Positions 33,452 to 56,642 of a stretch of 64,000 bases of DNA are shown here, in pieces. The notes under the pieces were generated by a model. It ran no database searches. It had not been told where the DNA came from and was given only the letters and a program-made list of their open reading frames with translations. A program made the translations under genes and the position numbers. Location of the stretch: contig JADLDK010000028.1 in assembly GCA_020846715.1 (NCBI GenBank), forward strand, positions 60,059 to 124,058. Reading direction: 5' to 3'. Source of the stretch: Armatimonadota bacterium (lineage in GTDB: Bacteria > Armatimonadota > UBA5829 > DSUL01). Positions within the stretch are counted from its first letter, which is position 1; every line of letters starts with the position of its first letter.

Positions 33452-33471
33452 TTTCCTGGAGAGCCAGAGAC

Positions 33472-33670: not shown

Positions 33671-33743
33671 GCCGACGTAGCTCAGTTGGTAGAGCAGCGC
33701 ATTCGTAATGCGCGGGTCACAGGTTCGAGTCCTGCCGTCGGCT
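33671..33743 (+). tRNA. tRNA-Thr (anticodon CGT)
   Basis: A 73-nt cloverleaf with acceptor GCCGACG/CGTCGGC, anticodon loop TTCGTAA between GCGCA/TGCGC, and T-arm CAGGTTCGAGTCCTG. It is the last of the tRNA cluster and lies 87 bases before the dioxygenase start. Confidence 0.97.
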
Positions 33744-37979: not shown

Positions 37980-39443
37980 CTATCGCTTCGTTATCTTCTT
38001 GAGCGCCGCTTCAGCCTTCGCCGGGCTGGCGTCAGCTTTCTTGCCGCCGGAGCTCTGCTGCGCGTTCTGCGCGTCCACAAACGGCTTGATATAAGACTGC
38101 GCCTTCTCCTTCGTGGAGATGTCCGGCACTTTGACAAAGTCCAGACCTCCACGGCGGGCGCGCACCTGCGCTATCATCAGACGTCCCTGCTGGGCGAGAT
38201 CAACAGAGCGGCCGAGAACGCGCGCACACTCCTGAGGGGCGTGGAATCCCATGCCGTTGTTGGCAGCTACATAGTCCCAGGACATTTGCGCCCACATGAC
38301 TTTCTCCCGCGCCGGCTCCAGCTCCTGATCTGTTGCGCCACGGTTCATCGCATCCCGAATTTCCAGATGCAGCGCCGTGATAGCGTCCTCAGCTCTGTCC
38401 AGCATCTCTCGATTCTTGTCCTGAATGCCTGTGACCCGGCTGCGCACCTCATCTTCACTCCATCGGTGGCACACCTGGCAGGAGTTGGCGACATTGTATA
38501 GGGGACTGCGGACCTGATGATCCGTAAACTTAATGCCACCCTCTGACTTGTAGGGCATGTGGCAGTCGGCGCAGGCGACGTTGCGGAAGGCATGAATGCC
38601 CTGCTGGTAAACCTCGTAGTCGGGATGCTGCATCTTGATCATCTTTGCGCCGCTGATCGCATGCACCCAGTCGCGGAAGCCGACCTTCTGGTAGTACTTC
38701 TGGAAGTCCTCCGCCTTCAGCCCCTCGTCCCACGGAAAGACCAGATAGTTCGTTTTCTTGTCTTTGAAATAGTACTCAACGTGACACTGTGCACAGACCA
38801 GAGTGCGCATCTCCTGATGTGTGGATTTGTTCACGTCCTTGCCATGACGGCGGAAAGCCTCAATCAACGCGGGACGCGAAATCTGCAGCGCCATCGTTTT
38901 TGGATTGTGGCAGTCCGCGCACCCAATCGTGTTTGTGATCTCGTGCTTCAGGTCTTTGAAGTGCTGCGCATAGAACTTTCCCGGTCCTATCTGGCTCATG
39001 AGGCGCGGGACGTCAGGACTCTTGCAGGTCCAGCACGTACCCGGAGTCTTGTCGTTGATGCGTTTGGTGCCGTTGACGTCTTCCAAAGAGTGGAAGTGCC
39101 CGCGTGGCGCATTGTAGTCTTTGGCAAAGGGATAGCCCGCCCACATTACCACCAGCCGCGGATCGCGCTCGAGATAATCGCGATGCCCGGAGCCACCGTA
39201 GGCTGTATTCTCCTGAATCTGCTTCGTGCTCTCCCAGGAGTTGTACTCACGCGGGAAGTTGACGCCCCATTTACTGTTGTCCGCCTCCCACTCTTTAATG
39301 GGCTGCTGCATCTGGATCAGAGCCGCGCCCCGCTGCTCGCGACGCTCCAGGATACTGGAAGCCAGAAGACCCAGCGCGACTACGCCGAGCGCAACTCCGC
39401 CGAAAATGAACCATCCGATTCTATTTGCTCTTTTTTCGTCCAT
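37980..39443 (-). CDS. nrfA: Ammonia-forming cytochrome c552 nitrite reductase NrfA
   Basis: A 487-residue pentahaem enzyme that reduces nitrite to ammonium outside the membrane. The catalytic haem motif is C137WTCK141. Four CxxCH sites follow at 175, 217, 291 and 322. Active-site Arg114 (NAPRGH), Tyr224 (VEYYF) and His273 (KMQHPDYE) fit known NrfA. An uncleaved N-terminal helix (about 11-30) may act as anchor rather than a cleaved signal. GAGGAA precedes the ATG. It forms a complex with NrfH, encoded 121 bases upstream. The C-terminus has an extra Lys/Ala-rich tail of about 40 residues. Confidence 0.97.
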   Translation of the reverse strand: MDEKRANRIGWFIFGGVALGVVALGLLASSILERREQRGAALIQMQQPIKEWEADNSKWGVNFPREYNSWESTKQIQENTAYGGSGHRDYLERDPRLVVMWAGYPFAKDYNAPRGHFHSLEDVNGTKRINDKTPGTCWTCKSPDVPRLMSQIGPGKFYAQHFKDLKHEITNTIGCADCHNPKTMALQISRPALIEAFRRHGKDVNKSTHQEMRTLVCAQCHVEYYFKDKKTNYLVFPWDEGLKAEDFQKYYQKVGFRDWVHAISGAKMIKMQHPDYEVYQQGIHAFRNVACADCHMPYKSEGGIKFTDHQVRSPLYNVANSCQVCHRWSEDEVRSRVTGIQDKNREMLDRAEDAITALHLEIRDAMNRGATDQELEPAREKVMWAQMSWDYVAANNGMGFHAPQECARVLGRSVDLAQQGRLMIAQVRARRGGLDFVKVPDISTKEKAQSYIKPFVDAQNAQQSSGGKKADASPAKAEAALKKITKR

Positions 39444-39564: not shown

Positions 39565-40155
39565 TCACTTGAACGAGTCTGATTCCTGATTCTTCGCCTT
39601 CTCACCTTTCAGCCAGGGAACCACTGGGTCCAGAGGCGGCACGGCGGCGTTAGGCGTGCTGGACAGAGAGTGCACCCTGCCGTGAGGCACCTCTCGATGG
39701 CAGTCTGTGCACGATCTGTCCCAGTCCGTATGCACCGGCGCTCTGGCACGCTCGATCGTCGCGCGATGACAGCGAATGCAGTTTTCCTGGATCACGTGCT
39801 CGGACTCGGGAATCGCCTTAATGACCTGCTTCTCCATGCCCAGCGTGAACAGCACTGAATGGCGTGTGCCGTCCTTGGCTTTGAAATAGTACTTTCTGAG
39901 AGTGCTGTCGTGCGGAACGTGACAGTCGTTGCAGTTGGCGACACGAGCGTGGCTGGAGTGCTTCCATGAGGCGTACTCCGGAACCATGATGTGGCAGTTG
40001 ATGCACGCTTCGGGGTCATCAGACAAATAAGACGCCGCCCGCGAGATGTGGGCGACATAGAGAACCATCCCGACGAAGGCGCCCAGTACGGCAAAGACTG
40101 CGTAACGCAACCGCCTCGGAATTTTGCGACAGACGTCTTTTGGGCTGGCAATCAT
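39565..40155 (-). CDS. nrfH: Tetrahaem quinol dehydrogenase NrfH
   Basis: A 196-residue NapC/NirT-type protein that takes electrons from menaquinol to NrfA. One N-terminal membrane helix (about 18-35) is followed by four CxxCH sites at 51, 75, 126 and 149. The N-terminal haem region CINCHIMVPEYASWKHSSH is typical of NrfH, including the Met that can ligate haem 1. No clear ribosome site is visible before ATG 40155. The 15-bp palindrome at 40319-40333 lies upstream and is shared with the nirK operon. The gene heads nrfHA-resB-ccsA. Confidence 0.95.
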   Translation of the reverse strand: MIASPKDVCRKIPRRLRYAVFAVLGAFVGMVLYVAHISRAASYLSDDPEACINCHIMVPEYASWKHSSHARVANCNDCHVPHDSTLRKYYFKAKDGTRHSVLFTLGMEKQVIKAIPESEHVIQENCIRCHRATIERARAPVHTDWDRSCTDCHREVPHGRVHSLSSTPNAAVPPLDPVVPWLKGEKAKNQESDSFK

Positions 40156-40318
40156 TACTGTGTAGCCGCGGGACTCGCTCTTCCCGCCGGTTCAAGCGCG
40201 TCTGAGGGCTGGATCGCGCTGGGCCACGCACACCCGCGCCAACAGCTTGCGACGCACGACTCACAGGAGATTTCACCTTTTCAAGCGGCTGTTCCTTGTC
40301 GAGACCTGGCCGCGCCGA

Positions 40319-40333
40319 TAGTACTTTCGTACT
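40319..40333 (-). promoter_or_regulatory. Palindromic motif upstream of nrfHA, shared with the nirK operon
   Basis: On the coding strand AGTACGAAAGTACTA contains AGTAC-N4-GTACT, a perfect 5-4-5 inverted repeat, 164 bases before nrfH. The same 15-mer with one change lies upstream of the nirK operon (52908-52922). The 5-4-5 spacing equals that of CRP/FNR-family sites, but the half-site differs from FNR TTGAT. A 7-2-7 palindrome (40332-40347) overlaps its edge. Confidence 0.6.
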
Positions 40334-40446
40334 GGCGCGTGCGCCAGGCCCCTATCATGCGAGGCACAGCGTAGCTGAAGAGACGCCGCAGACGCATGCA
40401 GCAAAGAAGCTGAGGCCCACGGCCAGCACAGACAGCGTCCGGTAGC

Positions 40447-41394
40447 TTACTTCTTCCTGTCTTTGCCGGTGATTTTGCGCATCAGCCACATAACGGGGTC
40501 GTAGTAGCGATCCGCCAGACGTTCCTTGAGAGGGATAATCGCATTGTCCGTGATGTGGATACCTTCCGGACAGACTTCTGTGCAGCACTTCGTAATGTTG
40601 CAAAAGCCGATTCCGAAGTCTTCCTTTATCTGGGACACGCGGTCCGCGGTATCCAGAGGGTGCATCTCGAGACTCGCGAGCCGGATAAACCAGCGTGGGC
40701 CCGCAAAGGCGTCCTGACGGCGATGATCGCGCAGGACGTGGCAAACGTCCTGACAGAGGAAGCACTCAATGCACTTGCGGAATTCCTGGATGCGATCGAC
40801 GTCCTTTTGCATCATACGATAGTTGCCATCGGCATCGCGAGGTTTTGGTTTGAACGGCGGAATTCGCTTGTTCACTTCATAGTTGAACGAAACGTCCGTA
40901 ACCAGGTCCTTGATGATAGGGAACGTCTTCATCGGCTGGACGGTGATGGTCTCTTCGGGGTCGTAATCGCTCAGACGAGTCATACACGCCAGCTTTGGCC
41001 TTCCGTTTATCTCCATCGAGCACGATCCGCACTTGCCCGCTTTGCAGTTCCAGCGGCACGCCAGATCGTTAGCGTGAAGCGCTTGAATACGGTGGATGGC
41101 GTCGAGGACCACCATACCAGGACCGCATTCGACTTCATAATCTACAAAGTCGCCGCTGTCTTTATCACCTCGCCACACCTGAAACCGGCGCGAAGAAACT
41201 GCGGAGAGCGGTATTGCGGATGACGGGTCGGTGGTGGAGTTTTGATCTGGGGAGGCGGAATGTGTTTCCTGAGCTGGCGCCGGAGCAAGGTTATCGGGCC
41301 GAGTCTGCTCATTTGACCTTGGCGGTACCTTCCAATTCTTCCAGTGATGCGTAGGCGATAGCGGCCAGATCGGCCGGTGGGTCCGGCCGTACAT
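40447..41394 (-). CDS. sdhB: Succinate dehydrogenase/fumarate reductase iron-sulfur subunit
   Basis: A subunit of up to 315 residues carrying electrons from the flavin to quinone. The [2Fe-2S] ligands are in CRWNCKAGKCGSCSMEINGRPKLAC. The [4Fe-4S] and [3Fe-4S] ligands are in CIECFLCQDVC and CCTEVCPEGI. The start is uncertain: ATG 41394 overlaps sdhA by 86 bases, and between the sdhA stop and the first conserved strand (RRFQVWRGD) no ATG or TTG is in frame. A GTG within QVWRGD would clip the fold. A C-terminal extension (DRYYDPVMWLMRKITGKDRKK) matches the actinobacterial Sdh1 type. Confidence 0.93.
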   Translation of the reverse strand: MYGRTHRPIWPLSPTHHWKNWKVPPRSNEQTRPDNLAPAPAQETHSASPDQNSTTDPSSAIPLSAVSSRRFQVWRGDKDSGDFVDYEVECGPGMVVLDAIHRIQALHANDLACRWNCKAGKCGSCSMEINGRPKLACMTRLSDYDPEETITVQPMKTFPIIKDLVTDVSFNYEVNKRIPPFKPKPRDADGNYRMMQKDVDRIQEFRKCIECFLCQDVCHVLRDHRRQDAFAGPRWFIRLASLEMHPLDTADRVSQIKEDFGIGFCNITKCCTEVCPEGIHITDNAIIPLKERLADRYYDPVMWLMRKITGKDRKK

Positions 41395-43147
41395 CAGTGC
41401 GCACGTTCATGCCGCTCTCACCTTTTGAAATAATGACGTTGTGTTTGCCCCATTCCTCGCGTTCGCCCTGAAAATCATCCCGCGTGTGGCCGCCGCGACT
41501 CTCCTCGCGGATCAGCGCTGCCCGCGCCACGGCCTCCGCAGTCGTTAGCAATGACGTCAGATCCAGAGCCTGATGCCATCCGGGGTTGTACTGGCTGGCC
41601 CCGTGGGCTTTGACGAGGGCGGCTTCGCGCTTCAGATCTTCAAGCTGGCGAAGCGCTTCTTCCAGCTCCGCGCGTGTGCGAATGATGCCGACATTCGTCT
41701 GCATCATATCCTGCAGCTTCTCCTGCAAGACGTACGGATTTGGCCCGTCTTCGCGGTTCAGGACATCTGTCGCCTCGCGAATGACCTCCATAACCTGGTC
41801 GCTGTCCACCTCGGGAGCTTTCTCCAGAGTCTGAATGTAATCGCTCGCGCCCGCTCCGGCCAACTGTCCAAACACCAGCAAGTCCGACAGTGAGTTGCCA
41901 CCCAGGCGATTTGCGCCGTGCATTCCACCAGTGCACTCTCCGCACGCAAACAGCCCGTCAACTGTCTGGCTCATCTGAGTGTCGTCATCAACCCGGATGC
42001 CACCCATAAAGTAGTGCATCGTGGGTCCGACTTCCATTGGCTCTTTGGTGATGTCAATCTCCGCGAGCTCTTTGAACTGGTGATACATGGATGGGAGTTT
42101 GCGTTTGATGTCTTCCGCGCTTCTTCTGGAGGCAATATCCAGATAGACCCCGCCATGCGTAGATCCGCGGCCGGCTTTGACCTCCGTGTTGATTGCGCGG
42201 GCTACGACGTCCCGTGTCAGGAGCTCCGGTGGCCGCCGTGCGCCCGGATCGCCTTCCAGCCAGCGCGCTGCCTCCTGGACCGTATCCGCCGTCTCAGCGG
42301 CAAAGCGCTCGGGGATATAGTCGAACATGAATCGCTCGCCCTTGTTGTTGAGCAGAATCCCACCCTCGCCGCGTACGCCTTCCGTGACCAGAACTCCCCG
42401 TACGGAGGGCGGCCAGACCATACCTGTCGGATGAAACTGCGTGAACTCCATATGAATGAGCTCTGCGCCCGCTTCATAAGCCATCGCCGCTCCATCTCCG
42501 GAATACTCCCAGGAGTTGGAGGTGATGCGCCACGCGCGGCCGCCGCCGCCAGTCGCCAGAATTACGGCCTTGGCCTTGAACAGAACGAACCGCCCTGTCT
42601 CACGCCACAACCCGACTGCACCGGAAATGCGAGGCCCATCTTTGAGCAGATTAAGGACCTTGCACTCCATATAGATGTCGATAGGTTGGTGAACGCCAAA
42701 ATCCTGCAGTGTGCGAATGATTTCCAGACCTGTGCGATCGCCCACATGAGCGAGCCTCGGATAGCGATGTCCACCGAAGTTGCGCTGGGAGATCAGGCCG
42801 TCCGCGGTGCGGTCGAACACCGCCCCCCACTCTTCAAGCTCGCGGACGCGCTCCGGTGAGAGCTTCGCGTGCAACTCAGCCATGCGCCACTGATTCATGA
42901 ACTTGCCGCCGCGCATGGTGTCCCGAAAATGAATCTTCCAGTTGTCCCGGTTGTCTGTATTTCCGAGTGAGGCCGCCACGCCGCCTTCTGCCATCACCGT
43001 GTGAGCTTTGCCCAGCAGCGACTTGCAGACAAGACCTGTCTTCAGGCCCAGACGGGCGCACTCGATAGCTGCGCGCAGACCGGCGCCGCCTGCGCCAATG
43101 ACCAGCACGTCGTGCTCAAATGTCTGAATTTCCGATATGTCCGCCAA
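41309..43147 (-). CDS. sdhA: Succinate dehydrogenase/fumarate reductase flavoprotein subunit
   Basis: A 612-residue flavoprotein. GAGGAGLRAAIE binds the FAD ADP part. H49 in KAHTVMAEGG is the likely covalent flavin attachment. THGGVYLDIASRR, MHYFMGGIRVDDDTQMS and GANRLGGNSLSDLLVFGQLAG are family hallmarks with the substrate-binding His and Arg. The C-terminal helical domain (RAALIREESRGGHTRDDF) is normal. It is four bases from sdhC upstream and overlaps sdhB. The direction of the reaction cannot be told from sequence. Confidence 0.97.
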   Translation of the reverse strand: MADISEIQTFEHDVLVIGAGGAGLRAAIECARLGLKTGLVCKSLLGKAHTVMAEGGVAASLGNTDNRDNWKIHFRDTMRGGKFMNQWRMAELHAKLSPERVRELEEWGAVFDRTADGLISQRNFGGHRYPRLAHVGDRTGLEIIRTLQDFGVHQPIDIYMECKVLNLLKDGPRISGAVGLWRETGRFVLFKAKAVILATGGGGRAWRITSNSWEYSGDGAAMAYEAGAELIHMEFTQFHPTGMVWPPSVRGVLVTEGVRGEGGILLNNKGERFMFDYIPERFAAETADTVQEAARWLEGDPGARRPPELLTRDVVARAINTEVKAGRGSTHGGVYLDIASRRSAEDIKRKLPSMYHQFKELAEIDITKEPMEVGPTMHYFMGGIRVDDDTQMSQTVDGLFACGECTGGMHGANRLGGNSLSDLLVFGQLAGAGASDYIQTLEKAPEVDSDQVMEVIREATDVLNREDGPNPYVLQEKLQDMMQTNVGIIRTRAELEEALRQLEDLKREAALVKAHGASQYNPGWHQALDLTSLLTTAEAVARAALIREESRGGHTRDDFQGEREEWGKHNVIISKGESGMNVRTDVRPDPPADLAAIAYASLEELEGTAKVK

Positions 43148-43150
43148 GCG

Positions 43151-44011
43151 CTATCTCCCCCAGGTGTTGAAGTCCGGAATGTAGCCCAGAGACACCATCC
43201 GCACGTAAAAATCAGTGAACGCCACCCAGAACAGACTCATCCAGGCGTACTGCATGTGCCTTTCGTTGAACCCCGTAATCTTCGACCAGAGCGAATGCCG
43301 GGCCTCGCAGGATGAGCTGCAACTGAAGCAATCCAGCCTTCCGCCTACAAGGTGCCTCAGAGAGTGGCAGCCAAAGGTGTATCCTGACAGCAGCGCCGCG
43401 TTGATGATGAGGACAACTGTTCCTACCCCGATACCAAAGCGCCCATCTTTGAAAAATGCGCGCACAGCATCCGTCCACAGGACAACAACAAAGATCAAGG
43501 CGATGTACATCGCGTAGCGGTGGAGGTTCTGAAAAAGCAGAAACTTGGTTTCGCCCTTGTAAGGGTGCTGCGGAATCGGGCCCACAGCGCATCCCGGTGG
43601 CATCCCCGCAAACGATCGGTAATAGGCTTTGCGATAGTAGTAACAGGTGAACCTGAAAGCCCCCGGGAACGGGAGAATCAGGATGGAGGGCGAGATAGGA
43701 ATAAAAGCGGGCCACCACTGCGGCCAGCTCCCAAACCAGGCGTGGGCAACAGGCGCAGCCCCGGCGGCGTCAGGGTTCACCCACAACAGCGGCGAGTAAA
43801 ACGGCGACAGATACGGACTGACGTAGTAGTGGTTGCCCTGGAAGGCGGCCCAGGTTGCATAAATGATGAACAAGCTGAGGCCGATGAGAACGGCGAGAGG
43901 CTCAGTCGCCCAGTGGTCTTTTCGGGAAGTGGCCCGGAAGCCGTCCTTATGACCGCCAGGACGAGTACCGGCGGCTGGCGCATGATCAGCCGGATTTGTT
44001 GATACTGCCAC
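43151..44011 (-). CDS. sdhC: Succinate dehydrogenase membrane anchor (actinobacterial Sdh1-type)
   Basis: A 286-residue membrane protein with five or six helices. HWATEPLAVLIGLSLFIIYATWAAFQGNHYY, PFPGAFRFTCYYYRKAYYRSF, LHRYAMYIALIFVVVLWTDAVRAF and GCHSLRHLVGGRLDCFS match the large single-subunit anchor found beside actinobacterial-type SdhA/B, not the small SdhC/SdhD pair. Several His residues could hold haem. GTG follows AGGAGG. It is the first gene of sdhCAB, upstream of the nrf operon on the same strand. The match is from memory of the family and should be checked. Confidence 0.82.
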   Translation of the reverse strand: MAVSTNPADHAPAAGTRPGGHKDGFRATSRKDHWATEPLAVLIGLSLFIIYATWAAFQGNHYYVSPYLSPFYSPLLWVNPDAAGAAPVAHAWFGSWPQWWPAFIPISPSILILPFPGAFRFTCYYYRKAYYRSFAGMPPGCAVGPIPQHPYKGETKFLLFQNLHRYAMYIALIFVVVLWTDAVRAFFKDGRFGIGVGTVVLIINAALLSGYTFGCHSLRHLVGGRLDCFSCSSSCEARHSLWSKITGFNERHMQYAWMSLFWVAFTDFYVRMVSLGYIPDFNTWGR

Positions 44012-44093
44012 GGATTGATAGTCCTCCTAGCTTACTGCAGGCACGCGGCTTGCGCTTGAGAGCGCTGCCCATTCTACTATATGTTGCCGAGAC

Positions 44094-44579
44094 CTACAAG
44101 GGAGGCGAAGACGCAGGCCGCCCTTTCCAGTAGATAAGCTCATCCACATCGGGTACGACGTAGCCGGGAATTCTCCCCACGCTCATATAACCCAGAGACT
44201 CATAAAATCGCTGCGCAGAAGCGTTGAAGTCGCTGGTGAGGAGAAAAGCGTGCTCGGAGACTTGAAATATCTGGGACTCAGCAGCCGACATCAAAGCTCT
44301 GCCGACGCCTGAGCGGCGCCGGTCCGAACGGACGGCCAGGAGGCGGATATATCCGCCGCGTCCAAACGTGCCCTGCGTGACGAACCAGACGAGCCCGGCC
44401 TCTTCACCATCTACCAGCGCCGTCAGGAGCGTGCCACTTTGCAGCGCGCGGCCGATGTACTCATCCGGTGTGCCAAGGGCATTGCTGTAGCGCTGGAGAA
44501 ACTCGGCGTCCGCCACTATTCGGGCCAGCGCCTGAGCCTGCTGCGGGTTGGCTGGCAATACTTCGACGGCGCTCTTCAT
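44094..44579 (-). CDS. GNAT-family N-acetyltransferase
   Basis: A 161-residue acetyltransferase. The acetyl-CoA site is RSDRRRSGVGRALMSAAE (R/Q-x-x-G-x-G/A pattern), preceded by GYIRLLAV and followed by LLTSDFNASAQRFYESLGYMSVG. This is the common small-molecule or protein acetylation fold, with no residue that fixes the substrate. It overlaps the VOC gene by four bases (ATGA), so the pair is co-expressed. Confidence 0.88.
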   Translation of the reverse strand: MKSAVEVLPANPQQAQALARIVADAEFLQRYSNALGTPDEYIGRALQSGTLLTALVDGEEAGLVWFVTQGTFGRGGYIRLLAVRSDRRRSGVGRALMSAAESQIFQVSEHAFLLTSDFNASAQRFYESLGYMSVGRIPGYVVPDVDELIYWKGRPASSPPL

Positions 44580-44980
44580 CCCGTAATCTGCCGAGAACCG
44601 GACGTAAACTGGTGGAACTCAATCGGGTTGCCATCGGGGTCTTGTATCCAGAACTGCCACGCACCGTCAGCGCCCAGTACCGGCTCCGCACTGCTGCTGA
44701 CCACACCTCGGGACGCCAGCTCTCGATAGGCGCGTTGAATATCGTCCACTTCCAGGCAGAGATGGACTGTTCCGGCCGACTCTGTCTTCTGGTGGGGAGC
44801 AGCAGCTCCCGGAAACAGCTCGATAAACTGGTTCTGGGCAACCTTGATGTAAACGAGCCAGGGCTTACCGTCTTTTTCAAGCCGAAACTGCTCACTCAGA
44901 CCAAGAACGCTGAGATAGAAATTCAGCGCTTTGTCGATATCTGTCACGCGGATGGCGACGTGCGATAGGGCGCGTATCAT
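44576..44980 (-). CDS. VOC-superfamily (glyoxalase/dioxygenase-like) protein
   Basis: A 134-residue protein with two beta-alpha-beta-beta-beta modules. The first is LSHVAIRVTDIDKALNFYLSVLGL and the second GTVHLCLEVDDIQRAYRELASRGV, ending with WQFWIQDPDGNPIEFHQF. The metal ligands would be H7, H73 or a neighbour, and the Glu in IEFH. Members isomerise hemithioacetals, open catechol rings or sequester antibiotics. The adjacent GNAT gene would also fit drug modification, but this is speculative. Confidence 0.88.
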   Translation of the reverse strand: MIRALSHVAIRVTDIDKALNFYLSVLGLSEQFRLEKDGKPWLVYIKVAQNQFIELFPGAAAPHQKTESAGTVHLCLEVDDIQRAYRELASRGVVSSSAEPVLGADGAWQFWIQDPDGNPIEFHQFTSGSRQITG

Positions 44981-45019
44981 AGCAGGGTAAGCTTAGAACT
45001 CGCCCGCCAAAGTCCTGCT

Positions 45020-45697
45020 TCAGCCGGTGGCGAACTCCTCCGGGTGTGCCCGTATGTAGTCGGCCCGCATCTTTGTCAGAGAGTGCTGTTTCTCCAGTTT
45101 CAGAAACTCGGCGTCGTATTTGCCCAGATCAGAGTACTCATACGATCGAGAGAAAGCATCAGGCGTGCCAATCCGGCGGAAGCGCTCCCGCATCGGGGCT
45201 TCCTTTCGGGCCTGCACAATTGCTCTCTCCACGAGATCCGCATAATGGCGCGCGCCGATCAACTCAAAGTCCTCGACTACCTCGTTGTCCAACGCACCCT
45301 GCGTGTTCCAGAAGTACTGATTGAACCCACCGTTCTCCACCTCAGCCTGCAGATTGATGGTGGTGTAGATCATGCGCATCCCGCGCGGCAGTTTCCTGGC
45401 TGCTTCCTCTTCGGGTCCGGGAATCTGGCGCAAAAGGTACTCCACCTGCGTCGCCGCGCCGGACTCCAGCAGGTCGTCTGGCAGATCGTGAATCATCCCC
45501 ACGGTCAAAGGCTCGGGGCGAGGCAGATCGTCCGTGCCGTGAGACCTCTCTGGCGCCTGCTTTGCTGGTTGGGCGGCTTTCGGAGGAACGGCAGGCGCTG
45601 ACGGTTTGAGCCGGAGGTAGCCGATAGCCGCACAGGCAGCGACAACTGCCACGACGGCAAACGCTACCATTCGACTACTCTGTACCGGTGTCCTCAT
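45020..45697 (-). CDS. Membrane-anchored DUF4375-like protein
   Basis: A 225-residue protein. An N-terminal hydrophobic segment (MVAFAVVAVVAACAAIGYL) anchors a Pro/Ala-rich linker. The C-terminal domain contains AEVENGGFNQYFWNTQGALDNEVVEDFELIGARHYADLVERAI, the DUF4375/DMP19-like signature. That domain is widespread in immunity and stress-related proteins of unclear function. The ATG at 45697 or the Met at residue 10 could be the start. It is separated from the VOC gene by 39 bases. Confidence 0.72.
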   Translation of the reverse strand: MRTPVQSSRMVAFAVVAVVAACAAIGYLRLKPSAPAVPPKAAQPAKQAPERSHGTDDLPRPEPLTVGMIHDLPDDLLESGAATQVEYLLRQIPGPEEEAARKLPRGMRMIYTTINLQAEVENGGFNQYFWNTQGALDNEVVEDFELIGARHYADLVERAIVQARKEAPMRERFRRIGTPDAFSRSYEYSDLGKYDAEFLKLEKQHSLTKMRADYIRAHPEEFATG

Positions 45698-45951
45698 CTG
45701 CTCTTCAGTATATCAGCTACATGCGCGTCTTTCGCCGGCAGGTGTTCAGACCAGCAAGACAGTCACAGGTCCATCCGGCTTGCCCGGACACTCTCGCCTC
45801 TGTTTACAGTTTCCCATTTCCGGGCTGTCTTCTCACGTGCATGCTCGGCAGATCAGCGCACTGGCAACCGCGCGAGCGCTCGGAGCTGTCTCAAATACTC
45901 CGCTTGCGGGTACTCTGAGAGTAGCGGCGTTAGAGGGCCGGCATATCTCCC

Positions 45952-46920
45952 ATGCAAGAGCAGCTTCACAGTCCCGTAGAGAAAAACGAGGTCCAATCTC
46001 TTGACGGAGTTGATCTCAAAGGAGATCTGCGCCTCAAAGTTGACGGCAACAGCGTCTCCCTTACCAATCTCGACAAGATCTACTGGCCACAGGAGGGCAT
46101 CTCGAAGGGAGAATTGCTGAAATACTACTGGGATATCTCGGACGTCCTGCTGCCTCACCTCAGGGAGCGTCCACTCATTCTCAAGCGTCACCCTGACGGC
46201 ATTTCGGGACCCTGGTTCTTCCAGCACAATGTGGAATCCGCTCCATCCTATGTGCAGACTTTTGAGCGCCAAGACGGTGAGAAGACCATTCATCACGTCC
46301 TCGTCAACAACAAAGCGACTCTGCTCTACGTCGTGAATCTCGGGACGATCGCGCAGAACTGCTGGAGCTCTACGGTTGCTCACCCGGACAAACCGGACTG
46401 GATCGTCTTTGATCTGGACCCGGGCGAAGTGAAGTATGCGCAGGTGCTCAGAGTGGCGCTGGAGCTTCGTGAGACGCTGGCGCAGATCGGACTGAAGAGC
46501 TGGTGCAAGACTTCCGGATCGCGCGGAGCGCATGTGTATGTGCCGATCAACGCTGAATACTCCTACGACGCGACGCTGCAATTCGGCGAAGCAGTGTGTC
46601 AAAAACTCGCGCGTCAGCTTCCCGAGTTCGTGACGCTGGAGAGATCTATCCGGCAGCGGCCGCCAGACAGAATCTACCTCGACTACATGCAAAACTCCGA
46701 GGGCAAGAGTGTGGCATCCGCCTATTCGGTCCGGGCGAGAGCGCACGCCAGTGTTTCCACACCTTTGACGTGGGAGGAAGTGAGCGAGGGGCTCAGCGGC
46801 AATCTGAAACCCACGGATTTCACTATCCGCACAATGCCGCAGCGTCTAAAGAAGGTGGGCGATCTCTTCGAAGAAGTTATCAGTTTGAGGCAGTCTCTCC
46901 CAGATCTCTCAACCGTCTAG
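45952..46920 (+). CDS. Stand-alone LigD-type polymerase/primase domain protein
   Basis: A 322-residue archaeo-eukaryotic primase-like polymerase, the PolDom of LigD used in non-homologous end joining. SLTNLDKIYWPQEGISKGELLKYYW is the family opening. The metal Asp pair is D154/D156 in FDLDPGE, the nucleotide motif is SGSRGAHVYVPI, and the third Asp is in RIYLDYMQN. VNLGTIAQNCWSS supplies conserved contacts. No ligase, phosphoesterase or Ku gene is in the window. It may work with partners elsewhere, as separate polypeptides do in some bacteria. Confidence 0.92.
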   Translation: MQEQLHSPVEKNEVQSLDGVDLKGDLRLKVDGNSVSLTNLDKIYWPQEGISKGELLKYYWDISDVLLPHLRERPLILKRHPDGISGPWFFQHNVESAPSYVQTFERQDGEKTIHHVLVNNKATLLYVVNLGTIAQNCWSSTVAHPDKPDWIVFDLDPGEVKYAQVLRVALELRETLAQIGLKSWCKTSGSRGAHVYVPINAEYSYDATLQFGEAVCQKLARQLPEFVTLERSIRQRPPDRIYLDYMQNSEGKSVASAYSVRARAHASVSTPLTWEEVSEGLSGNLKPTDFTIRTMPQRLKKVGDLFEEVISLRQSLPDLSTV

Positions 46921-46934
46921 GAGACAACCCAAAG

Positions 46935-47945
46935 CTAGTTGGGGAAAATCTCAGCGACCACCATGCGGTGATCGGAGTTATCCGTCCTCACAGCGCGGAC
47001 GCGCACTGCGTGAAGAGCTTTGCTGATCCAGATCTGGTCAATGCGAATGACGGGGAAGCTGTTCAGAAAGGTATTGCCCCACCCGCGCCCGTGAGAACGA
47101 AAACTATCGCGCATCAACCCTTTGAATGGTGAAAAGGCGCCGTCATGCGCTGGGGAGTTGAAGTCACCACCGACGACTACAGGCGCCTGGCGCGGCAGTG
47201 CGCTCACATGACCCGCCAGCAGCTGGACCTGCTCCCGATGCCGCTCTCGAACATCGCGGAAGGAACTCCAGTAGTCACGTGTCCAGAAATCGTAGCGAAA
47301 TGGCGCGACAGACAGGTGCGTACTGACGACAAACAGCTCGCTGCTCTGCCAGCGAACTCTCGCAGCCGCGCTTCTCACCGCAAGCTCCACTGGAAGGCGC
47401 TGTTTTTCCAGCGGATAGCGCGAGATGATGGAGCTGTCCATCCCAGTGATGTAAGACGCGCTCCTTCCGAAGAGAGAGCGCGCAACGTGGGCGACTTTGT
47501 CTGCGCCAGGAGACTCCTGGAGCAGGACGATATCCGGGTGCAAGCGTCGTGTTTCCAGGGCAGCGGCCGCCGTACCGCCCGCGCAGTTTACAGACACAAT
47601 GCGCAGTGTGGTAGAGGGAGCCGTTCTCTGGGGCATGAGCGAACGCGCGAGACTCCACGGCTCCTCGGACACAAGCGGAAGATAGACGACACTCAACACA
47701 GTCATTATGACGAAGTACGCCGGCCGCTTGCGCATAAGGCTGATAGCCGAGAGCAGCCAGCTTAGCACTATCCACATCCAGCCAGGCCAGACTGTCAGGC
47801 CGGCCAGAGCGTCCGGCTGGTACATATAAACCTTCTGGCAACCACTCAGAATCACCACCGCTAGCAGGAACAGCACTGTCTTGGCGGTTGAGAGCCGTGG
47901 GCGGGTGGTTGAACTGCTGTCAGATTTGTCTGTTGCCTGAGCCAT
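46935..47945 (-). CDS. Membrane-anchored endonuclease/exonuclease/phosphatase-family protein
   Basis: A 336-residue protein. Three hydrophobic segments in the first 100 residues anchor an EEP domain with IVSVNCAGG, IVLLQES (metal Glu), VVVGGDFNSPAHDG, RIDQIWIS and the terminal SDHRMVVAE His pair. The fold cuts phosphodiesters in DNA, lipids or inositol phosphates. The catalytic part probably faces the periplasm, which argues against a DNA-repair role despite lying next to the LigD-type polymerase. The two genes converge, so they are not co-transcribed. Confidence 0.85.
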   Translation of the reverse strand: MAQATDKSDSSSTTRPRLSTAKTVLFLLAVVILSGCQKVYMYQPDALAGLTVWPGWMWIVLSWLLSAISLMRKRPAYFVIMTVLSVVYLPLVSEEPWSLARSLMPQRTAPSTTLRIVSVNCAGGTAAAALETRRLHPDIVLLQESPGADKVAHVARSLFGRSASYITGMDSSIISRYPLEKQRLPVELAVRSAAARVRWQSSELFVVSTHLSVAPFRYDFWTRDYWSSFRDVRERHREQVQLLAGHVSALPRQAPVVVGGDFNSPAHDGAFSPFKGLMRDSFRSHGRGWGNTFLNSFPVIRIDQIWISKALHAVRVRAVRTDNSDHRMVVAEIFPN

Positions 47946-48293
47946 TTGTGTTAGCCGCTACCCTTGTGCGCCGCCGCCGTGGAAACTCAAGCTCTGCACC
48001 TGACCGGACGCCTCTCGGAGCGGGGAAATGCAGCACGCCCGGCGCACAAGCGTTGAAAACAGATTCGACATCAGACAGTGCCGGACATTCCTGAACTGAG
48101 CGTCCGCGACTGACCAAAACTGGAACATCTCTCCAAATGATGTGCAAAGTTGCTTGCGAAACCGGTTGACCTGTGACACTTCCTGTGTTAGCCTGTAGAG
48201 TACACCTCTCGTAGATCTGGGACAACCCGGACGGCCGTGAGTTCGTTGCACACTCGCATACGACAGAACCACGGGAGAGGAAGGAGAAATAAG
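47946..48293. other. Intergenic region before a PEP-CTERM gene
   Basis: These 348 bases contain no supported gene. A plus-strand candidate promoter (TTGACC at 48166, 17-base spacer, TAGCCT at 48189) is weak at the -10 box. A strong ribosome site GAGAGGAAGGAG lies just before the ATG. The CTGTG sequence repeats around 48171-48187. Confidence 0.4.
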
Positions 48294-49760
48294 ATGAAGC
48301 GTAAATGTCGGTGGGCATTTGCCGTGGCGAGCGCGCTGCTGGTTCTCCCAGCCTCTGTTTTCGCCAACGTCTACCCCACCAATCTCACTCAAAGCTCAAG
48401 TAGCCTCAATACCTACTTCGCGCAAACGGTCAACCTGGGCTACCTTCTGAATCAGGCGGCGGACGCAGGCGTCACCGTTGATATTCTCAACTCCAGCAAT
48501 GCCGTAGTGAAGACCTTTGCCCTCGGCGCGCAAAGCCAGGGTGTCCAGACGCTGAGTTGGGATGGAACAGATTCATCCAACAACCCTGTTCCAGCGGGAG
48601 ACTACTCATTCCGCGTCACCACCAGCGCCCTCGGCTGTGGTGGATGGACACAGATCAGCAACGACGGCAACGTCAATCTGCAGTTCAACTCCCCGCGCGG
48701 TGTGTCAGTCAACAGAGACCCGACCAGCCCGTACTACGGCCGCATCTTCGTGGCCAACTCGGCGGCCGGAGCTCAGGGCGACGGCATCTTCGCGCGCAAC
48801 GCGGACGGATCAGACTCGGCTCTCGGTCAGGGCAACTCAGCGTTGACGGGCGGCTTCAGCTGGGGCGCCAGCACCTCTGCCAGCCCCTACTTCATAGAAG
48901 TGGGTTCGGACAACAAGCTCTACATCTCGGACGGGTCCGACCCGCACGGTGGCATCTACCGGACTGACATGAACATCAGCAACGGTGAGCAGGTACTGGA
49001 CGGAATTGGTGATAGCGCCAATCCGAGCGTGCACGGCTCTACAGCCAGCTCTGTCATCGTTTCTGGCTCAACAGCGGGCGGTGACCTCAAAGTGTTTGCG
49101 CTGGATGAGGACATGATTCCGCATCAGGGACTGTGGGAGTGGAACATCGGCGCGGGTCCTCTTCCGTCTGCAGTTGCTCCGACACTGCTTTCCAGCCCGC
49201 TCATCAGCTTCGTGGCTGGGACCACGGTTGACCTCGCCAGAGGCCCGGCGGGCAACTTCTATCTATCGCAAAATCGCTCAGCTGGTGCTGAAGCAGGACT
49301 GTTTGTCACCGACAACACAGGCGTCAACGTGCTGTGGGATTCACTCAACGCAACACGCACGCTGTTGGGAAATCCGAGCGCGCCAGACATGTTGACCAAA
49401 GTCCGCGCTATTGCGGTTTCCAGCGATGGCAACATGCTGGTAGCAGTTGTTGACAACTCGTCTTTCTGGACGATACCGCTGGTGGGAGGCGTACCTGATC
49501 TGTCCCTGGCAGCTCTGCAGTCAGTGGGCAGCGTCAACTTCGGGCGCGACATCTCAATGGACGCGGTGGGCAACGTCTACGTGTCTTCCAGTGGCAATGC
49601 GAAGGTGAAAATCTATTCACCGGGTGGCGCCAACTCATCATTCACGGAGTCTCTGGCTCCACTGGGCGCAATTCACGTAGTTCCTGAGCCGGGTTCGCTG
49701 CTCGCTCTCGGCGCAGGCGTCGTGTCGCTGGCAGGAATTCTTCGCCGCAAGCGCGCCTGA
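48294..49760 (+). CDS. Secreted PEP-CTERM protein with FlgD-Ig-like and beta-propeller-like regions
   Basis: A 488-residue exported protein. The signal peptide ends at VFAN. A FlgD-type Ig domain follows (about 30-110, VDILNSSNAVVKTFALGAQSQGVQTLSWDGTDSSNNPVPAGDYSFRV). A propeller-like body carries SVNRDPTSPYYGRIFVAN and repeated GNVYVSSSG/GNFYLSQ units. The C-terminus is VPEPGS, a hydrophobic helix and RRKRA, a complete PEP-CTERM sorting signal for exosortase. The open frame is longer but ATG 48294 starts the signal peptide. It is paralogous to the large protein at 61342 onward. Confidence 0.9.
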   Translation: MKRKCRWAFAVASALLVLPASVFANVYPTNLTQSSSSLNTYFAQTVNLGYLLNQAADAGVTVDILNSSNAVVKTFALGAQSQGVQTLSWDGTDSSNNPVPAGDYSFRVTTSALGCGGWTQISNDGNVNLQFNSPRGVSVNRDPTSPYYGRIFVANSAAGAQGDGIFARNADGSDSALGQGNSALTGGFSWGASTSASPYFIEVGSDNKLYISDGSDPHGGIYRTDMNISNGEQVLDGIGDSANPSVHGSTASSVIVSGSTAGGDLKVFALDEDMIPHQGLWEWNIGAGPLPSAVAPTLLSSPLISFVAGTTVDLARGPAGNFYLSQNRSAGAEAGLFVTDNTGVNVLWDSLNATRTLLGNPSAPDMLTKVRAIAVSSDGNMLVAVVDNSSFWTIPLVGGVPDLSLAALQSVGSVNFGRDISMDAVGNVYVSSSGNAKVKIYSPGGANSSFTESLAPLGAIHVVPEPGSLLALGAGVVSLAGILRRKRA

Positions 49761-49794
49761 TCAGCTTCGGTCTTAATCAAGGGAAGCTCAACAA

Positions 49795-49832
49795 CAGGGG
49801 CGGCTCGCTTTGAGCCGCCCCTGTTTCATTTT
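49795..49832 (+). terminator. Rho-independent terminator after the PEP-CTERM gene
   Basis: CAGGGGCGGCTC and GAGCCGCCCCTG form a perfect 12-bp stem with a 5-base loop, followed by TTTCATTTT. It starts 34 bases past the stop codon. Confidence 0.9.
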
Positions 49833-49898
49833 CTGTAAACGTAGAATGAGGCTAATATTGGCAGGTAACGACTGCGCTTCGAGCCTTAAGCCAGGCGT

Positions 49899-51185
49899 TC
49901 AGAAAAGCGCCGTTGCCTGCAGATAGAACCACTCGGAGCGCCCGGTTGCCCCGCCGGGCGAAGAAGACCCAGCCACCTGCTTGACAAAATCCCCCGGCCA
50001 GAAGATGGCGTAGCCGCCTTCAACACTCGCCGTCTTTGAAAGCGCTCTGCGGCCGTAGATGTCCAGCTCACGCCCCACATCTTTTCCCGCCGCACCAGTC
50101 GGGTCACGCAGCAGAACGCCAGAAGGGCCGACGTTTGGGCGCCCGGAGGCGCCGTACCAATAGTCTCGCGCATTCTGCAGACGGAAGCTGTGGATATCAG
50201 CGCCGAAGCTCCAACCGGGCGCTGGAGCATAGCGAAGGCCTGCCCGAAGATTGCGCATGTTGCGCCAGCCCTGGTTGTCCATAATGCCGTACTTATCGTG
50301 GTTAGTCGGATAGAGCTGATCGAAGGTGCGATACCTTCCAGTGCCGGTTGGGTCGCCACCGGAAGCCTCATTGGCCTCAATCATGGCCGTCCACTTCCGA
50401 TTCAGTTTATAGGACGCATCCGCATGCCATGCCCACGCGCGCACACTTCGCGCGCCGACATCGCCGAACTGATACGCCCCTTCCGCTCCTGTGTCCCAGC
50501 GCTCAAAAGCGCGCCTGAGCCGAACGCCGGGCGTATAAACGCGCACGTCCCCGGCTTTGCTGTCGCGCTTGTGAAGCAGGTAGCCATCCGTAGTGTTGCC
50601 CGGCTTTTGCACGGAGGCCGACCAGTACGCTCCCCACAGCCACGGCAGGCTCGGGCGCGGCAGCGCATCGCCCAACTGCGCGCCAAACAGATCGAGCCGT
50701 GAGGTGCGCAGATCGACGCTCACACGGGCGCCGTCAAAGGAGCGCCCAACATTGCTCCAGTTGAAGTTACCAACCAGGCGCTGATCTCCGTAGGTAAGTT
50801 CCTGACGTCCCATTCGGGCGGAAAGCTGAGAGGACATCTTCGGAACATCCACATAGAGTTGATGCACACGCAACCACGAATCCGTGCTCGAGCTCCCGGA
50901 GAGACGGGCTTTGTCATAGGAGAACTGAGGCTGGAAGAACACGGTTGCGTTGTCAGTCGTGTGTTTGATGTTCAGGCGGACGCGCGTGAACAGATCCGCC
51001 CTGTGATCGGCAAGCGGTGGAGAGAAATCTGCGTTTGAGCGGCTTTCCCAGCGTTCTCGCGCTTCGATAGATACGGTCGTTTTCGAGTCCGCAGACTTCA
51101 CAGAAACCTCCGCCACAGCCTGAGTGGCTGCGGCGAAGGCGGCAACTAGAGAAAGAACGATCCAACTCTCTGGAAATTTATACAT
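49899..51185 (-). CDS. Alginate-export-type outer membrane beta-barrel porin
   Basis: A 428-residue outer membrane protein. A signal peptide (about 1-26) is followed by alternating amphipathic strands with aromatic girdles. It ends in ...WFYLQATALF, with the terminal Phe used for barrel assembly. SARMGRQELTYGDQRLVGNFNWSNVGRSFDGARVSVD and LDLFGAQL match the Alginate_exp family. It begins nine bases after the nirK stop, so it is co-transcribed with nirK. In this setting it more likely passes nitrite or other small anions than alginate. That is inference, and no alginate genes are near. Confidence 0.87.
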   Translation of the reverse strand: MYKFPESWIVLSLVAAFAAATQAVAEVSVKSADSKTTVSIEARERWESRSNADFSPPLADHRADLFTRVRLNIKHTTDNATVFFQPQFSYDKARLSGSSSTDSWLRVHQLYVDVPKMSSQLSARMGRQELTYGDQRLVGNFNWSNVGRSFDGARVSVDLRTSRLDLFGAQLGDALPRPSLPWLWGAYWSASVQKPGNTTDGYLLHKRDSKAGDVRVYTPGVRLRRAFERWDTGAEGAYQFGDVGARSVRAWAWHADASYKLNRKWTAMIEANEASGGDPTGTGRYRTFDQLYPTNHDKYGIMDNQGWRNMRNLRAGLRYAPAPGWSFGADIHSFRLQNARDYWYGASGRPNVGPSGVLLRDPTGAAGKDVGRELDIYGRRALSKTASVEGGYAIFWPGDFVKQVAGSSSPGGATGRSEWFYLQATALF

Positions 51186-51193
51186 CAGGGTTC

Positions 51194-52264
51194 CTAGAAT
51201 CCGAACTTGTTGTAGATAAGGTGGTTTTCGCGCCCCGCAACTTTCAAAATCCCAACTGCGCCGATCTCAATCCGGTTGATAGCGTGATCCACCAGCGTGT
51301 AAGCGCCTGCCGTGCGAGCTGTCCACTCAACCATTGCGGCGCCACCCGGCGGGATGAGCGTTGTCTGAACATCTGCCTCCGGATTGATCATGGAGCCTTC
51401 AGGATAGACCTTGTCGAAGATGGCTCCGATCACATGGAAAGACGAAATCTTTGACGGACCACCATCACCCACATACAGACGGACCCTGTCGCCGACATTT
51501 GCAGTGAGCGCGTTGTCATCCATCAAGGCGCCTACTTTACCGTTGAAGACGATGTAGGTAGGCTGCTCAAGAGTGAGCTTGTCCTGTGAAAATGCCTGCA
51601 AGCCTTCCGCGCCAAAAGCGCCAACGGTGTAGAACTCACTCTGCATGACATAGTACTCCTTGTCAACAGGCGGCAGTCCTTCCTCCGGCTCGACGAGAAT
51701 CAAGCCGTACATCCCATTGGCGATATGCGTTGGCACGGGCGGCACAGCGCAGTGATAGACATACAGTCCAGGGTTGAGCAACCTGAACTGAGCTGCGGTA
51801 GTTTGCCCTGGCTGCACGATGGTGATTGCTGCTCCTCCGCCGGGTCCAGTAACGGCGTGCAGGTCTATGTTGTGCGGCATCGTGCTGTCGGCGCGGTTCG
51901 TGATGCGCAACTCCAGCATGTCACCCACGCGCGCCCGGATCATCGGACCCGGCACATGGCCATTGAACGTCCAGAAGCGGTACTGAGTCGGTTGATTGAC
52001 GCCCTCCATAAGCGTGCCGGTAATCTCCTCCGTGGTGAGATTGACTCGGACTATGGCCGGCTGGCGGCGCTTGATTGGGGGAGGAACATTGGGGGCGAAA
52101 GTCAGTTGAGCGTTTTCCGTAATGGAATAATTGTGATCCAGAAAGGCGTCACTGGCGGCAGAGGCAGTGTGCCTTGCACAACCTTGAAACAGCATGCTGC
52201 CCGTTACAGCGGCCACGACGACGGCCCCAGTCGTCCAGAGATATGCGCGGTTCGAAAATGTCAT
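51194..52264 (-). CDS. nirK: Copper-containing nitrite reductase NirK
   Basis: A 356-residue two-cupredoxin enzyme that reduces nitrite to NO. Type 1 copper ligands are H131, C172, H180 and M185. Type 2 ligands are H136, H171 and H327. Catalytic Asp134 and His277 are present. The 172-185 loop (CAVPPVPTHIANGM) has an unusual extra Pro stretch. The N-terminus (residues 9-30) ends VTGSMLFQGC, so C29 may be lipidated and tether the enzyme. ATG 52264 starts one base after the upstream gene's stop. The open frame extends 18 codons further. Confidence 0.96.
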   Translation of the reverse strand: MTFSNRAYLWTTGAVVVAAVTGSMLFQGCARHTASAASDAFLDHNYSITENAQLTFAPNVPPPIKRRQPAIVRVNLTTEEITGTLMEGVNQPTQYRFWTFNGHVPGPMIRARVGDMLELRITNRADSTMPHNIDLHAVTGPGGGAAITIVQPGQTTAAQFRLLNPGLYVYHCAVPPVPTHIANGMYGLILVEPEEGLPPVDKEYYVMQSEFYTVGAFGAEGLQAFSQDKLTLEQPTYIVFNGKVGALMDDNALTANVGDRVRLYVGDGGPSKISSFHVIGAIFDKVYPEGSMINPEADVQTTLIPPGGAAMVEWTARTAGAYTLVDHAINRIEIGAVGILKVAGRENHLIYNKFGF

Positions 52265-52265
52265 T

Positions 52266-52787
52266 TCAGACTCCTCTTTTTGATCCGGAAGACATCTCTG
52301 TCTGCCTAAGGTGAACAAAGGACTGGAATAGTCCCGAATCCTGTCGCTTCAGCGAGGTCATGAGGACCAGGCGATACTCGTTCCAGATTTGCCGGCTCTC
52401 AGGTGTATCACGAGAAGAATCTGCCAGTACAGCGGCCAGCCTTTTGAAGTCTTTCTGCTTCAGAATACTGCAGGCGCCGCAGCACGGCGGGCGCATCCAG
52501 ATGGTTTTTACACCCTTCACCCACAACCGCTTTTCCGCCAACGATGGAAAGCCCGATGCGAGCCGCAGGTCTGCGTCTGTCAAAGCAAGCGGTGACTTTA
52601 CTCCCTGGGGAACAACCTCAGCCTGTCCAAGCACTGAAGTCTGACTGGCGCTCTTCTGTGTGGACTTCTGTTGAAGGTGCTCAGTCGTCATTACACTTGC
52701 GCGGATTACGGCGGCAAAGGCCACCGCCACAACCGTGCAAATAACGGCAAACCGTCCTGCAGATGGCCAATCTCTGCGTGGAATCAT
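52266..52787 (-). CDS. Unknown exported protein with a CCxxC motif, first gene of the nirK operon
   Basis: A 173-residue protein with one N-terminal hydrophobic segment (about 12-30). A soluble part of no recognised family includes MRPPCCGACSILKQKDF (about 97-114), a Cys cluster that could bind copper or form a disulfide. Its stop lies one base before the nirK start. The position suggests a role in NirK maturation, copper delivery or electron transfer. I have no family match to confirm any of these. Confidence 0.7.
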   Translation of the reverse strand: MIPRRDWPSAGRFAVICTVVAVAFAAVIRASVMTTEHLQQKSTQKSASQTSVLGQAEVVPQGVKSPLALTDADLRLASGFPSLAEKRLWVKGVKTIWMRPPCCGACSILKQKDFKRLAAVLADSSRDTPESRQIWNEYRLVLMTSLKRQDSGLFQSFVHLRQTEMSSGSKRGV

Positions 52788-52865
52788 TCCTGTGTACCTC
52801 TTTGCGCTCCAAATAGATCCCGAAGCGCTCCAACAGCATTATGATAGAGAAAAAGCGAACTTTGC

Positions 52866-52884
52866 GATATTTTTTATAAATATC
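52866..52884. promoter_or_regulatory. AT-rich palindrome upstream of the nirK operon
   Basis: GATATTT and AAATATC flank TTTAT in a perfect 7-5-7 repeat. Its centre is about 44 bases upstream of the start point predicted from CATAAT at 52838, a normal place for an activator or repressor site. The AT-rich palindromic style recalls Rrf2/NsrR-type sites, but no consensus match is claimed. Confidence 0.5.
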
Positions 52885-52907
52885 CTGATTAAAGTACCCA
52901 AGGACAC

Positions 52908-52922
52908 TAGTACTTTCGTGCT
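52908..52922 (-). promoter_or_regulatory. Palindromic motif upstream of the nirK operon, shared with nrfHA
   Basis: On the coding strand AGCACGAAAGTACTA differs by one base from the 15-mer upstream of nrfH (40319-40333). It lies 121 bases before the first gene of the nirK operon. A further AAAGTAC at 52891-52897 forms an inverted pair with GTACTTT at 52910-52916, so the site may be double. Confidence 0.6.
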
Positions 52923-56468: not shown

Positions 56469-56642
56469 CGCATGGCCTTTTGATAAGGCTGCTTGCTTGA
56501 CACAGAACATTCCTCAAAATGTCCACAAAAAGTCACACCTGACATCCGGCCGTGCAGTACAATAGTAATTGGTCCTCTTGATACTCATAAAGCGAGAGCA
56601 CAGGCCGAAGGCCAGCCCGCGGGACCAAAAGGAGAGAATGAA

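What the first reader, a model, noticed from the sequence alone, without database searches (positions are those of the whole stretch)
40319..52922. The same palindromic 15-mer precedes both nitrite reductase operons
TAGTACTTTCGTACT (40319-40333) lies upstream of nrfHA and TAGTACTTTCGTGCT (52908-52922) upstream of the nirK operon, both in the same orientation relative to their genes. They match at 14 of 15 positions, and on the coding strand form AGTAC-N4-GTACT. I saw no third copy in the window, though I could not search exhaustively. The spacing is that of CRP/FNR-family sites but the half-site is not FNR's TTGAT. The simplest reading is one regulator, perhaps a nitrite, NO or oxygen sensor, acting on both ammonifying and NO-forming nitrite reduction.
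Basis: partly seen in the sequence, partly recalled or inferred. Interest (0 to 1): 0.75.

Follow-up and report, generated by a model that had tools for sequence, protein, structure and literature searches.

The report
Shared switch for nitrite reductase genes
In one bacterial genome nearly the same short DNA palindrome stands in front of the genes for two different nitrite-reducing enzymes and in front of the gene for a predicted nitric oxide-removing enzyme, and it is likely the docking site of one regulator that would switch all three together.

Summary
In detail: TAGTACTTTCGTACT and TAGTACTTTCGTGCT lie upstream of nrfHA and the nirK operon. As a bare pair they prove little. AGTAC-N4-GTACT with up to one mismatch is at chance level genome-wide (36 places, control 32). 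The window holds 524 near-identical 15-mer pairs, 12 palindromic. Site 1 is the apex of a strong RNA hairpin. The best 14-mer shared by the three promoters is this motif; 1 of 1000 simulations fits as well. In a same-family genome nrfH and qNOR carry exact TTGAY-N4-RTCAA boxes instead. That is the box predicted for the only CRP/FNR protein found in the window's genome. A common operator for nitrite and NO reduction is therefore likely (0.55). Its regulator is unidentified; a NarL/LuxR-type protein is my best guess. The site was not found at the related nrf, nirK or qNOR promoters examined.

The parts
40319..40333 (+). site 1, TAGTACTTTCGTACT, perfect AGTAC-N4-GTACT, centre about 171 bp from the nrfH start
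40301..40352 (-). strong RNA hairpin (about 21 paired positions, GAAA loop) whose apex is site 1; lies between the sdhB/frdB-like gene and nrfH; possible terminator or mRNA boundary, no T run behind it
   Evidence: -35.7 kcal/mol, z -5.65, 0 of 200 shuffles as stable; second strongest 60-nt fold in the window; for the sequence behind it
39565..40155 (-). nrfH, cytochrome c nitrite reductase small subunit
   Evidence: TIGR03153, 164 bits
37980..39443 (-). nrfA, ammonia-forming cytochrome c552 nitrite reductase
   Evidence: PF02335, 528 bits
36623..37891 (-). ResB-like protein downstream of nrfA
   Evidence: PF05140, 60.7 bits
40447..41394 (-). succinate dehydrogenase/fumarate reductase iron-sulphur subunit-like gene ending 291 bp before nrfH
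   Evidence: PF13085, PF13183
52908..52922 (+). site 2, TAGTACTTTCGTGCT, imperfect palindrome; centre about 128 bp from the first ORF of the nirK operon; also lies upstream of a divergent gene on the + strand
52893..52922 (+). cluster of three overlapping palindrome-like words at 8-bp steps (52893, 52901, 52909; 2, 1 and 1 mismatches)
52266..52787 (-). first ORF of the nirK operon, 173 aa, no Pfam or NCBIfam match
51194..52318 (-). nirK, copper nitrite reductase
   Evidence: TIGR02376, 332 bits (cut-off 296)
49899..51185 (-). alginate-export-type outer membrane porin, third gene of the nirK operon
   Evidence: PF13372, 158 bits

Best explanation
Three near-identical palindromes (YAGTACTTTNKTRCTR), upstream of nrfHA, of nirK and of the one quinol NO reductase gene found in the genome, are likely one operator through which a single unidentified regulator, predicted to be of the NarL/LuxR type, would co-control nitrite ammonification, NO formation and NO removal. 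Shown: the three sites, their positions and the identity of the genes by profile. Inferred: that a protein binds them, that it is one protein, and its family. The logic would be that NO made by NirK, or arising from nitrite in general, calls for qNOR, so the three genes are switched together. In same-family genome G001 the qNOR gene (74% identical protein) and a more distant nrfHA carry TTGAY-N4-RTCAA boxes, so the same functional set seems to have changed its box between the two lineages. Candidate regulators are the histidine kinase/response regulator pair on contig C42 and the LuxR-type gene about 2.8 kb downstream of qNOR on C9; neither is shown to act here.
For: Independent third site: AGTACTTTCGTRCT with up to 2 mismatches has 17 places in the 3.2-Mb genome, 15 besides the seeds. 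One of these 15 lies in the 233-bp gap before qNOR, by my arithmetic 15 x 233 / 3,204,436 = 0.001 for that one gene, several times more if other N-oxide genes had also counted as success. AGTACTTTNNTRCT occurs exactly at 4 places (0.2-0.3 expected): nrfH, nirK, qNOR and one about 348 bp before a xylose isomerase gene, none in a plausible gene. (Two of the four defined the pattern, and the NN was set after qNOR was seen.) The best 14-mer shared by the three promoters is this motif, 36 of 42 pairwise matches, reached by 1 of 1000 Markov simulations. qNOR has a second, weaker copy directly beside the first (CAGTACTTCCATACCA). In 262,875 held bases a matrix from the two seeds alone gives 5 positions at or above the qNOR score: the seeds, qNOR and the two places whose stretches were fetched because they match. 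G001 has exactly one TTGAY-N4-RTCAA box in each of two 20-kb stretches, and these stand upstream of nrfH and qNOR. NarL/LuxR type: the printed CrbR sites (e.g. CTAGACTTACGTCCAAT) share the NNNAC-N4-GTNNN layout, and all five best sites keep TTT in the spacer, which is in part the result of how they were searched.
Against: The bare palindrome is at chance level genome-wide, and AGTACTTTNNTRCT with up to one mismatch is too (10 observed, control 4, but 8.5-11.2 expected). For AGTACTTTCGTRCT with up to one mismatch 4 are seen, 2 of them seeds, 0.8-0.9 expected. Site 1 is the apex of an RNA hairpin whose outer stems need another reason. Not conserved: 0 of 14 related nrf loci have the palindrome (up to 1 mismatch) upstream, some with little upstream DNA (L026 has two, one inside nrfH and one further downstream); 0 of 80 nirK loci; 0 of 17 qNOR loci (two partial loci left out). 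TAGTACTTTCGTRCT with up to 1 mismatch: 7 hits in 60 relatives, not above the control. The five best sites include places before a xylose isomerase and a corrinoid protein gene, which fit no N-oxide regulon. With the site masked, nirK and nrfH promoters have no second copy. Among 8 regulator upstream regions the best motif scores are unremarkable (three at 4-5% of random windows). No regulator is linked.
Confidence: 0.55

Rival explanations
1. Coincidence: site 1 is the loop end of a transcription terminator or mRNA-boundary hairpin between the sdh-type operon and nrfHA, site 2 is an imperfect chance palindrome, and the qNOR match is luck.
For: Hairpin 40301-40352 on the - strand: -35.7 kcal/mol, z -5.65, 0 of 200 shuffles; site 2 shows nothing of the kind, z -0.45. 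It is the second strongest 60-nt fold in the window, in the company of hairpins at 5511, 49791 and 57441 that lie between genes. 524 near-identical 15-mer pairs in the window; genome-wide chance frequency of the palindrome; no conservation.
Against: It does not predict a match before qNOR (about 0.001), nor the three-promoter fit (1 of 1000). The hairpin has no run of T behind it. An operator can lie inside a hairpin.
Confidence: 0.3
2. The box is a CRP/FNR-family operator with a changed half-site, as in HcpR2 (GTAAC-N4-GTTAC) or NssR (TTAAC-N4-GTTAA), bound by a CRP/FNR protein of the N-oxide kind.
For: Length and N4 spacing are those of FNR-type boxes, and printed variants keep AC-N4-GT at the inner ends (passages of PMC1274295). 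G001 uses a true FNR/DNR-type box at nrfH and qNOR.
Against: One HTH_Crp_2 protein found in the genome. Its helix SPETLSR has Pro and Glu at the positions called 180 and 181 (alignment to CRP by eye, CRP helix recalled), which the paper ties to TTGAC-N4-GTCAA, not AGTAC. A second CRP/FNR gene could lie in the missing 6%.
Confidence: 0.12
3. Site 2 serves the divergent + strand gene beginning about 53,130, not nirK.
For: The site lies between the two divergent genes.
Against: The divergent gene is a large secreted-type protein with carboxypeptidase-regulatory and fibronectin domains with no tie to nrf or qNOR; the site is nearer to the nirK operon start.
Confidence: 0.05

Closest known systems
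CrbR/ErdR (LuxR-type response regulator) ACTU motif of acetate genes in Pseudomonas (PMC5715377; passages seen)
   Same: Imperfect inverted repeat with NNNAC-N4-GTNNN layout, e.g. CTAGACTTACGTCCAAT; needed for activation by a LuxR-type response regulator
   Different: Arms differ from AGTAC/GTACT; targets are acetate genes; other phylum
DNR / FNR / HcpR boxes (CRP/FNR family) of N-oxide regulons (PMC1274295; passages seen)
   Same: Same target genes (nirK, norB and others), 14-bp box with N4 spacer; TTGAC-N4-GTCAA type found at nrfH and qNOR in G001
   Different: Half-site AGTAC is none of the half-sites in the passages seen (TTGAT, TTGAC, TGTGA, GTAAC, TTGCG, TTAAC); the CRP/FNR protein found is predicted to read TTGAC/TTGAT
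NsrR (Rrf2) box gATGyAT-N5-ATrCATc and NorR GT-N7-AC (PMC1274295; passages seen)
   Same: NO-responsive control of NO reductase and nitrite reductase genes
   Different: Other words and spacings; the one Rrf2 protein found lies on another contig
NarXL (heptamer TACYNMT, recalled)
   Same: Candidate C42 pair has NarX-like kinase and NarL-like regulator matches, all below cut-off
   Different: No exact TACYNMT in either promoter by a literal-letter scan that did not expand Y and M, so this was not properly tested

Membership tests
CRP/FNR N-oxide operator (DNR/FNR/HcpR) | TTGAT/TTGAC half-sites with N4 | tested here: not met
   no TTGAT-N4-ATCAA within 2 mismatches at nrfH or nirK; none at qNOR of the window's genome; 0 exact TTGAY-N4-RTCAA in 262,875 held bases
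CRP/FNR N-oxide operator (DNR/FNR/HcpR) | a CRP/FNR protein whose helix fits the box | tested here: not met
   one protein found, Pro180/Glu181 type; missing 6% of the assembly not testable
NarL/LuxR-type (GerE) operator | inverted repeat of AC-N4-GT layout | tested here: met
   sequence of the sites against printed CrbR sites; a loose criterion that FNR-type TTGAC-N4-GTCAA also meets
NarL/LuxR-type (GerE) operator | GerE regulators present | tested here: met
   seven matches, one of which (C29) reads like a sigma factor (my reading)
NarL/LuxR-type (GerE) operator | binding of such a regulator to the site, or box at its own gene | tested here: inconclusive
   upstream scores of C9 and C42 reached by 4.7% and 3.7% of random windows; eight regions tested; binding itself not testable
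NsrR (Rrf2) operator | gATGyAT-N5-ATrCATc | tested here: not met
   a recalled NsrR-like form, AAGATG-N9-CATCTT, has no match within 4 mismatches at nrfH and only 4-mismatch ones at nirK; the printed form was not scanned
intrinsic terminator (site 1) | strong hairpin after a gene followed by a T run | tested here: inconclusive
   hairpin met, T run absent

The most novel reading that the evidence does not exclude
An undescribed operator, AGTAC-TTTN-GTRCT, and its unknown regulator have taken over the nitrite/NO regulon of this lineage from an FNR/DNR-type box, and have captured two nitrite reductase operons that look horizontally acquired (nrfHA and nirK) into the same switch as the resident NO reductase.
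Probability: 0.35. Interest if true: 0.6.

Novelty: new variant of a known kind. Interest (0 to 1): 0.45.

Why it matters
Ammonifying and NO-forming nitrite reduction compete for the same substrate, and one operator over both plus the NO reductase would tie the choice between keeping nitrogen as ammonium and losing it as gas to one signal. It would also be a case of an N-oxide regulon that keeps its target genes and changes its operator between genera of one family, with the new box named and ready for testing.

Tried and rejected
Rfam search of 32000-58000: tRNAs and sub-threshold matches, nothing at either site. Full-text search for six exact forms of the box: 0 papers; two further word searches gave 0 papers. 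A second copy of the site-1 hairpin in the genome: none beyond matches of at most 19 bp. nirK in relatives for footprinting: found in 1 of 61 relatives and 1 of 291 genomes of the phylum, always the window's own, so footprinting had to use distant nirK loci. Rrf2 as regulator: one gene, on another contig (read). NarL-type assignment by NCBIfam: C42 kinase and regulator match NarX/NarL, MctS/MctR and others, all below cut-off. RpuR paper as model: its site is a direct repeat by its section heading (PMC9100948, passages). Considered and left open: the places before a xylose isomerase gene (C54) and a corrinoid protein gene (C44).

Of the 15 non-seed places, by eye on ORF lists, six look intergenic (C44, C54, C7, C9, C23, C51) and nine lie in long frames.
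Full report
The observation. On the - strand, where both operons lie, they read AGTACGAAAGTACTA and AGCACGAAAGTACTA.

How much is the pair worth? Little by itself. The window contains 524 pairs of 15-mers with at most one mismatch, and in 12 of them both members are palindromic in the same sense. Two shuffled regions of the sizes of these two intergenic regions share such a pair in 6 of 2000 trials. AGTAC-N4-GTACT with up to one mismatch has 36 places in the genome, and the same letters read backwards 32. TAGTACTTTCGTRCT with up to one mismatch has 3 places in the window's genome and 7 in 60 relatives, not above the control.

Site 1 has another possible reason to be palindromic. It is the apex of a hairpin, 40301-40352 on the - strand, with a GAAA loop and further outer stems: -35.7 kcal/mol, z -5.65, 0 of 200 shuffles as stable. 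Site 2 has nothing like it (z -0.45). The hairpin follows the sdhB/frdB-like gene and precedes nrfH. It is the second strongest 60-nt fold of the window but has no T run. Six related nrfH upstream regions have best 60-nt folds of only -20.9 to -27.4.

The third site. AGTACTTTCGTRCT with up to two mismatches has 17 places in the genome, control 8. One of the 15 non-seed places, C9:1500-1513, AGTACTTTTTTACT, lies before an ORF of 763 aa whose first 463 residues match the NorB cytochrome c-like domain with 231 bits. A search with this protein finds one copy in the genome. The gap before this gene is 233 bp, so the expected number of such hits in it is 15 x 233 / 3,204,436, about 0.001. Written AGTACTTTNNTRCT the word has exactly 4 places: nrfH, nirK, qNOR and C54:17198, about 348 bp before a xylose isomerase gene. 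Markov models expect 0.2-0.3 exact and 8.5-11.2 with one mismatch, where 10 were seen. So the excess is in exact matches only, and the pattern was in part chosen after the fact. A fifth place with one mismatch lies before a corrinoid protein gene. In the three N-oxide promoters together the best shared 14-mer is this motif, with 36 of 42 pairwise matches; 1 of 1000 simulated triples did as well. qNOR has a weaker copy beside the first, and the nirK site overlaps two more palindrome-like words. With the main site masked, the nirK and nrfH regions have no second site by matrix score.

Relatives. nrfA is in 15 of 61 genomes, the window's included, qNOR in 17 of 61, nirK only in the window's own of 61 and of 291 genomes. 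None of 14 related nrf loci has the palindrome upstream (some with little upstream DNA), none of 17 qNOR loci within one mismatch (two partial loci left out), and none of 80 nirK loci from many phyla (600 bp before the match, less where the contig ends). Same-family genome G001 is instructive. It has exact TTGAC-N4-ATCAA before nrfH and exact TTGAC-N4-GTCAA before qNOR, the only TTGAY-N4-RTCAA words in 14 nrf loci (55,403 bases), in 19 qNOR loci (93,450 bases) and in two 20-kb stretches of G001. The window's genome has none in 262,875 held bases. In 80 nirK loci of other phyla there are 34 in 663,577 bases, so the word is not rare everywhere. The qNOR proteins are 74% identical. The NrfA of G001 is only 50% identical to the window's, less than the 67% of two genomes in another family, so nrfHA of the window was probably acquired from outside.

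The regulator. One protein with the CRP-type helix was found. Its helix reads SPETLSR. By the rule in PMC1274295 (passages) Ser or Pro at position 180 with Glu at 181 goes with TTGAC-N4-GTCAA; I placed these positions by eye. That is the G001 box, not AGTAC. One Rrf2 protein was found and seven GerE matches. Among the latter are a kinase/regulator pair on C42 and a LuxR-type gene with a weak receiver domain on C9, about 2.8 kb downstream of qNOR. Their upstream regions carry weak motif-like words that 3.7% and 4.7% of random windows also reach, which proves nothing. The layout NNNAC-N4-GTNNN recalls the CrbR sites printed in PMC5715377, hence my guess of a NarL/LuxR-type protein. It is a guess.

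Verdict. The pair is real; its two members alone would be a coincidence one meets by looking. The qNOR site, the three-promoter fit and the shared, different box in G001 raise a common N-oxide operator to a little better than even. The lack of conservation, the hairpin and the two unrelated targets keep it there.

Noticed in passing
51194-52318: nirK was found in only 1 of 291 genomes of the phylum (the window's own); its best matches are otherwise 79% or less and from mixed phyla. Probably acquired horizontally.
   Followed up: partly
37980-39443: NrfA is 67% identical to that of two genomes of another family but only 48-50% to the same-family genomes G003 and G001, which suggests xenologous replacement or gain.
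   Followed up: partly
5596-5952: Short protein of little more than a LuxR-type (GerE) helix-turn-helix, the best GerE match of the genome; similar short GerE proteins on contigs C37 and C26.
   Followed up: no
48237-49760 and 56493-57404: Two PEP-CTERM proteins, one with an FlgD Ig-like domain, one with a laminin-G-like domain, flank the nirK region.
   Followed up: no
49787-49875: Strong hairpin between two convergent genes, with a sub-threshold Rfam match (STnc250, 27.3 bits of 42); likely a terminator.
   Followed up: no
32774-33743: Cluster of five tRNA genes, four on the + strand and one on the - strand.
   Followed up: no
L006 (G000:C44) 1480-1533: Promoter of a methyltransferase corrinoid protein gene holds several AGTAC/GTACT words and an ACGAAAGT/ACTTTCGT inverted repeat.
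   Followed up: partly
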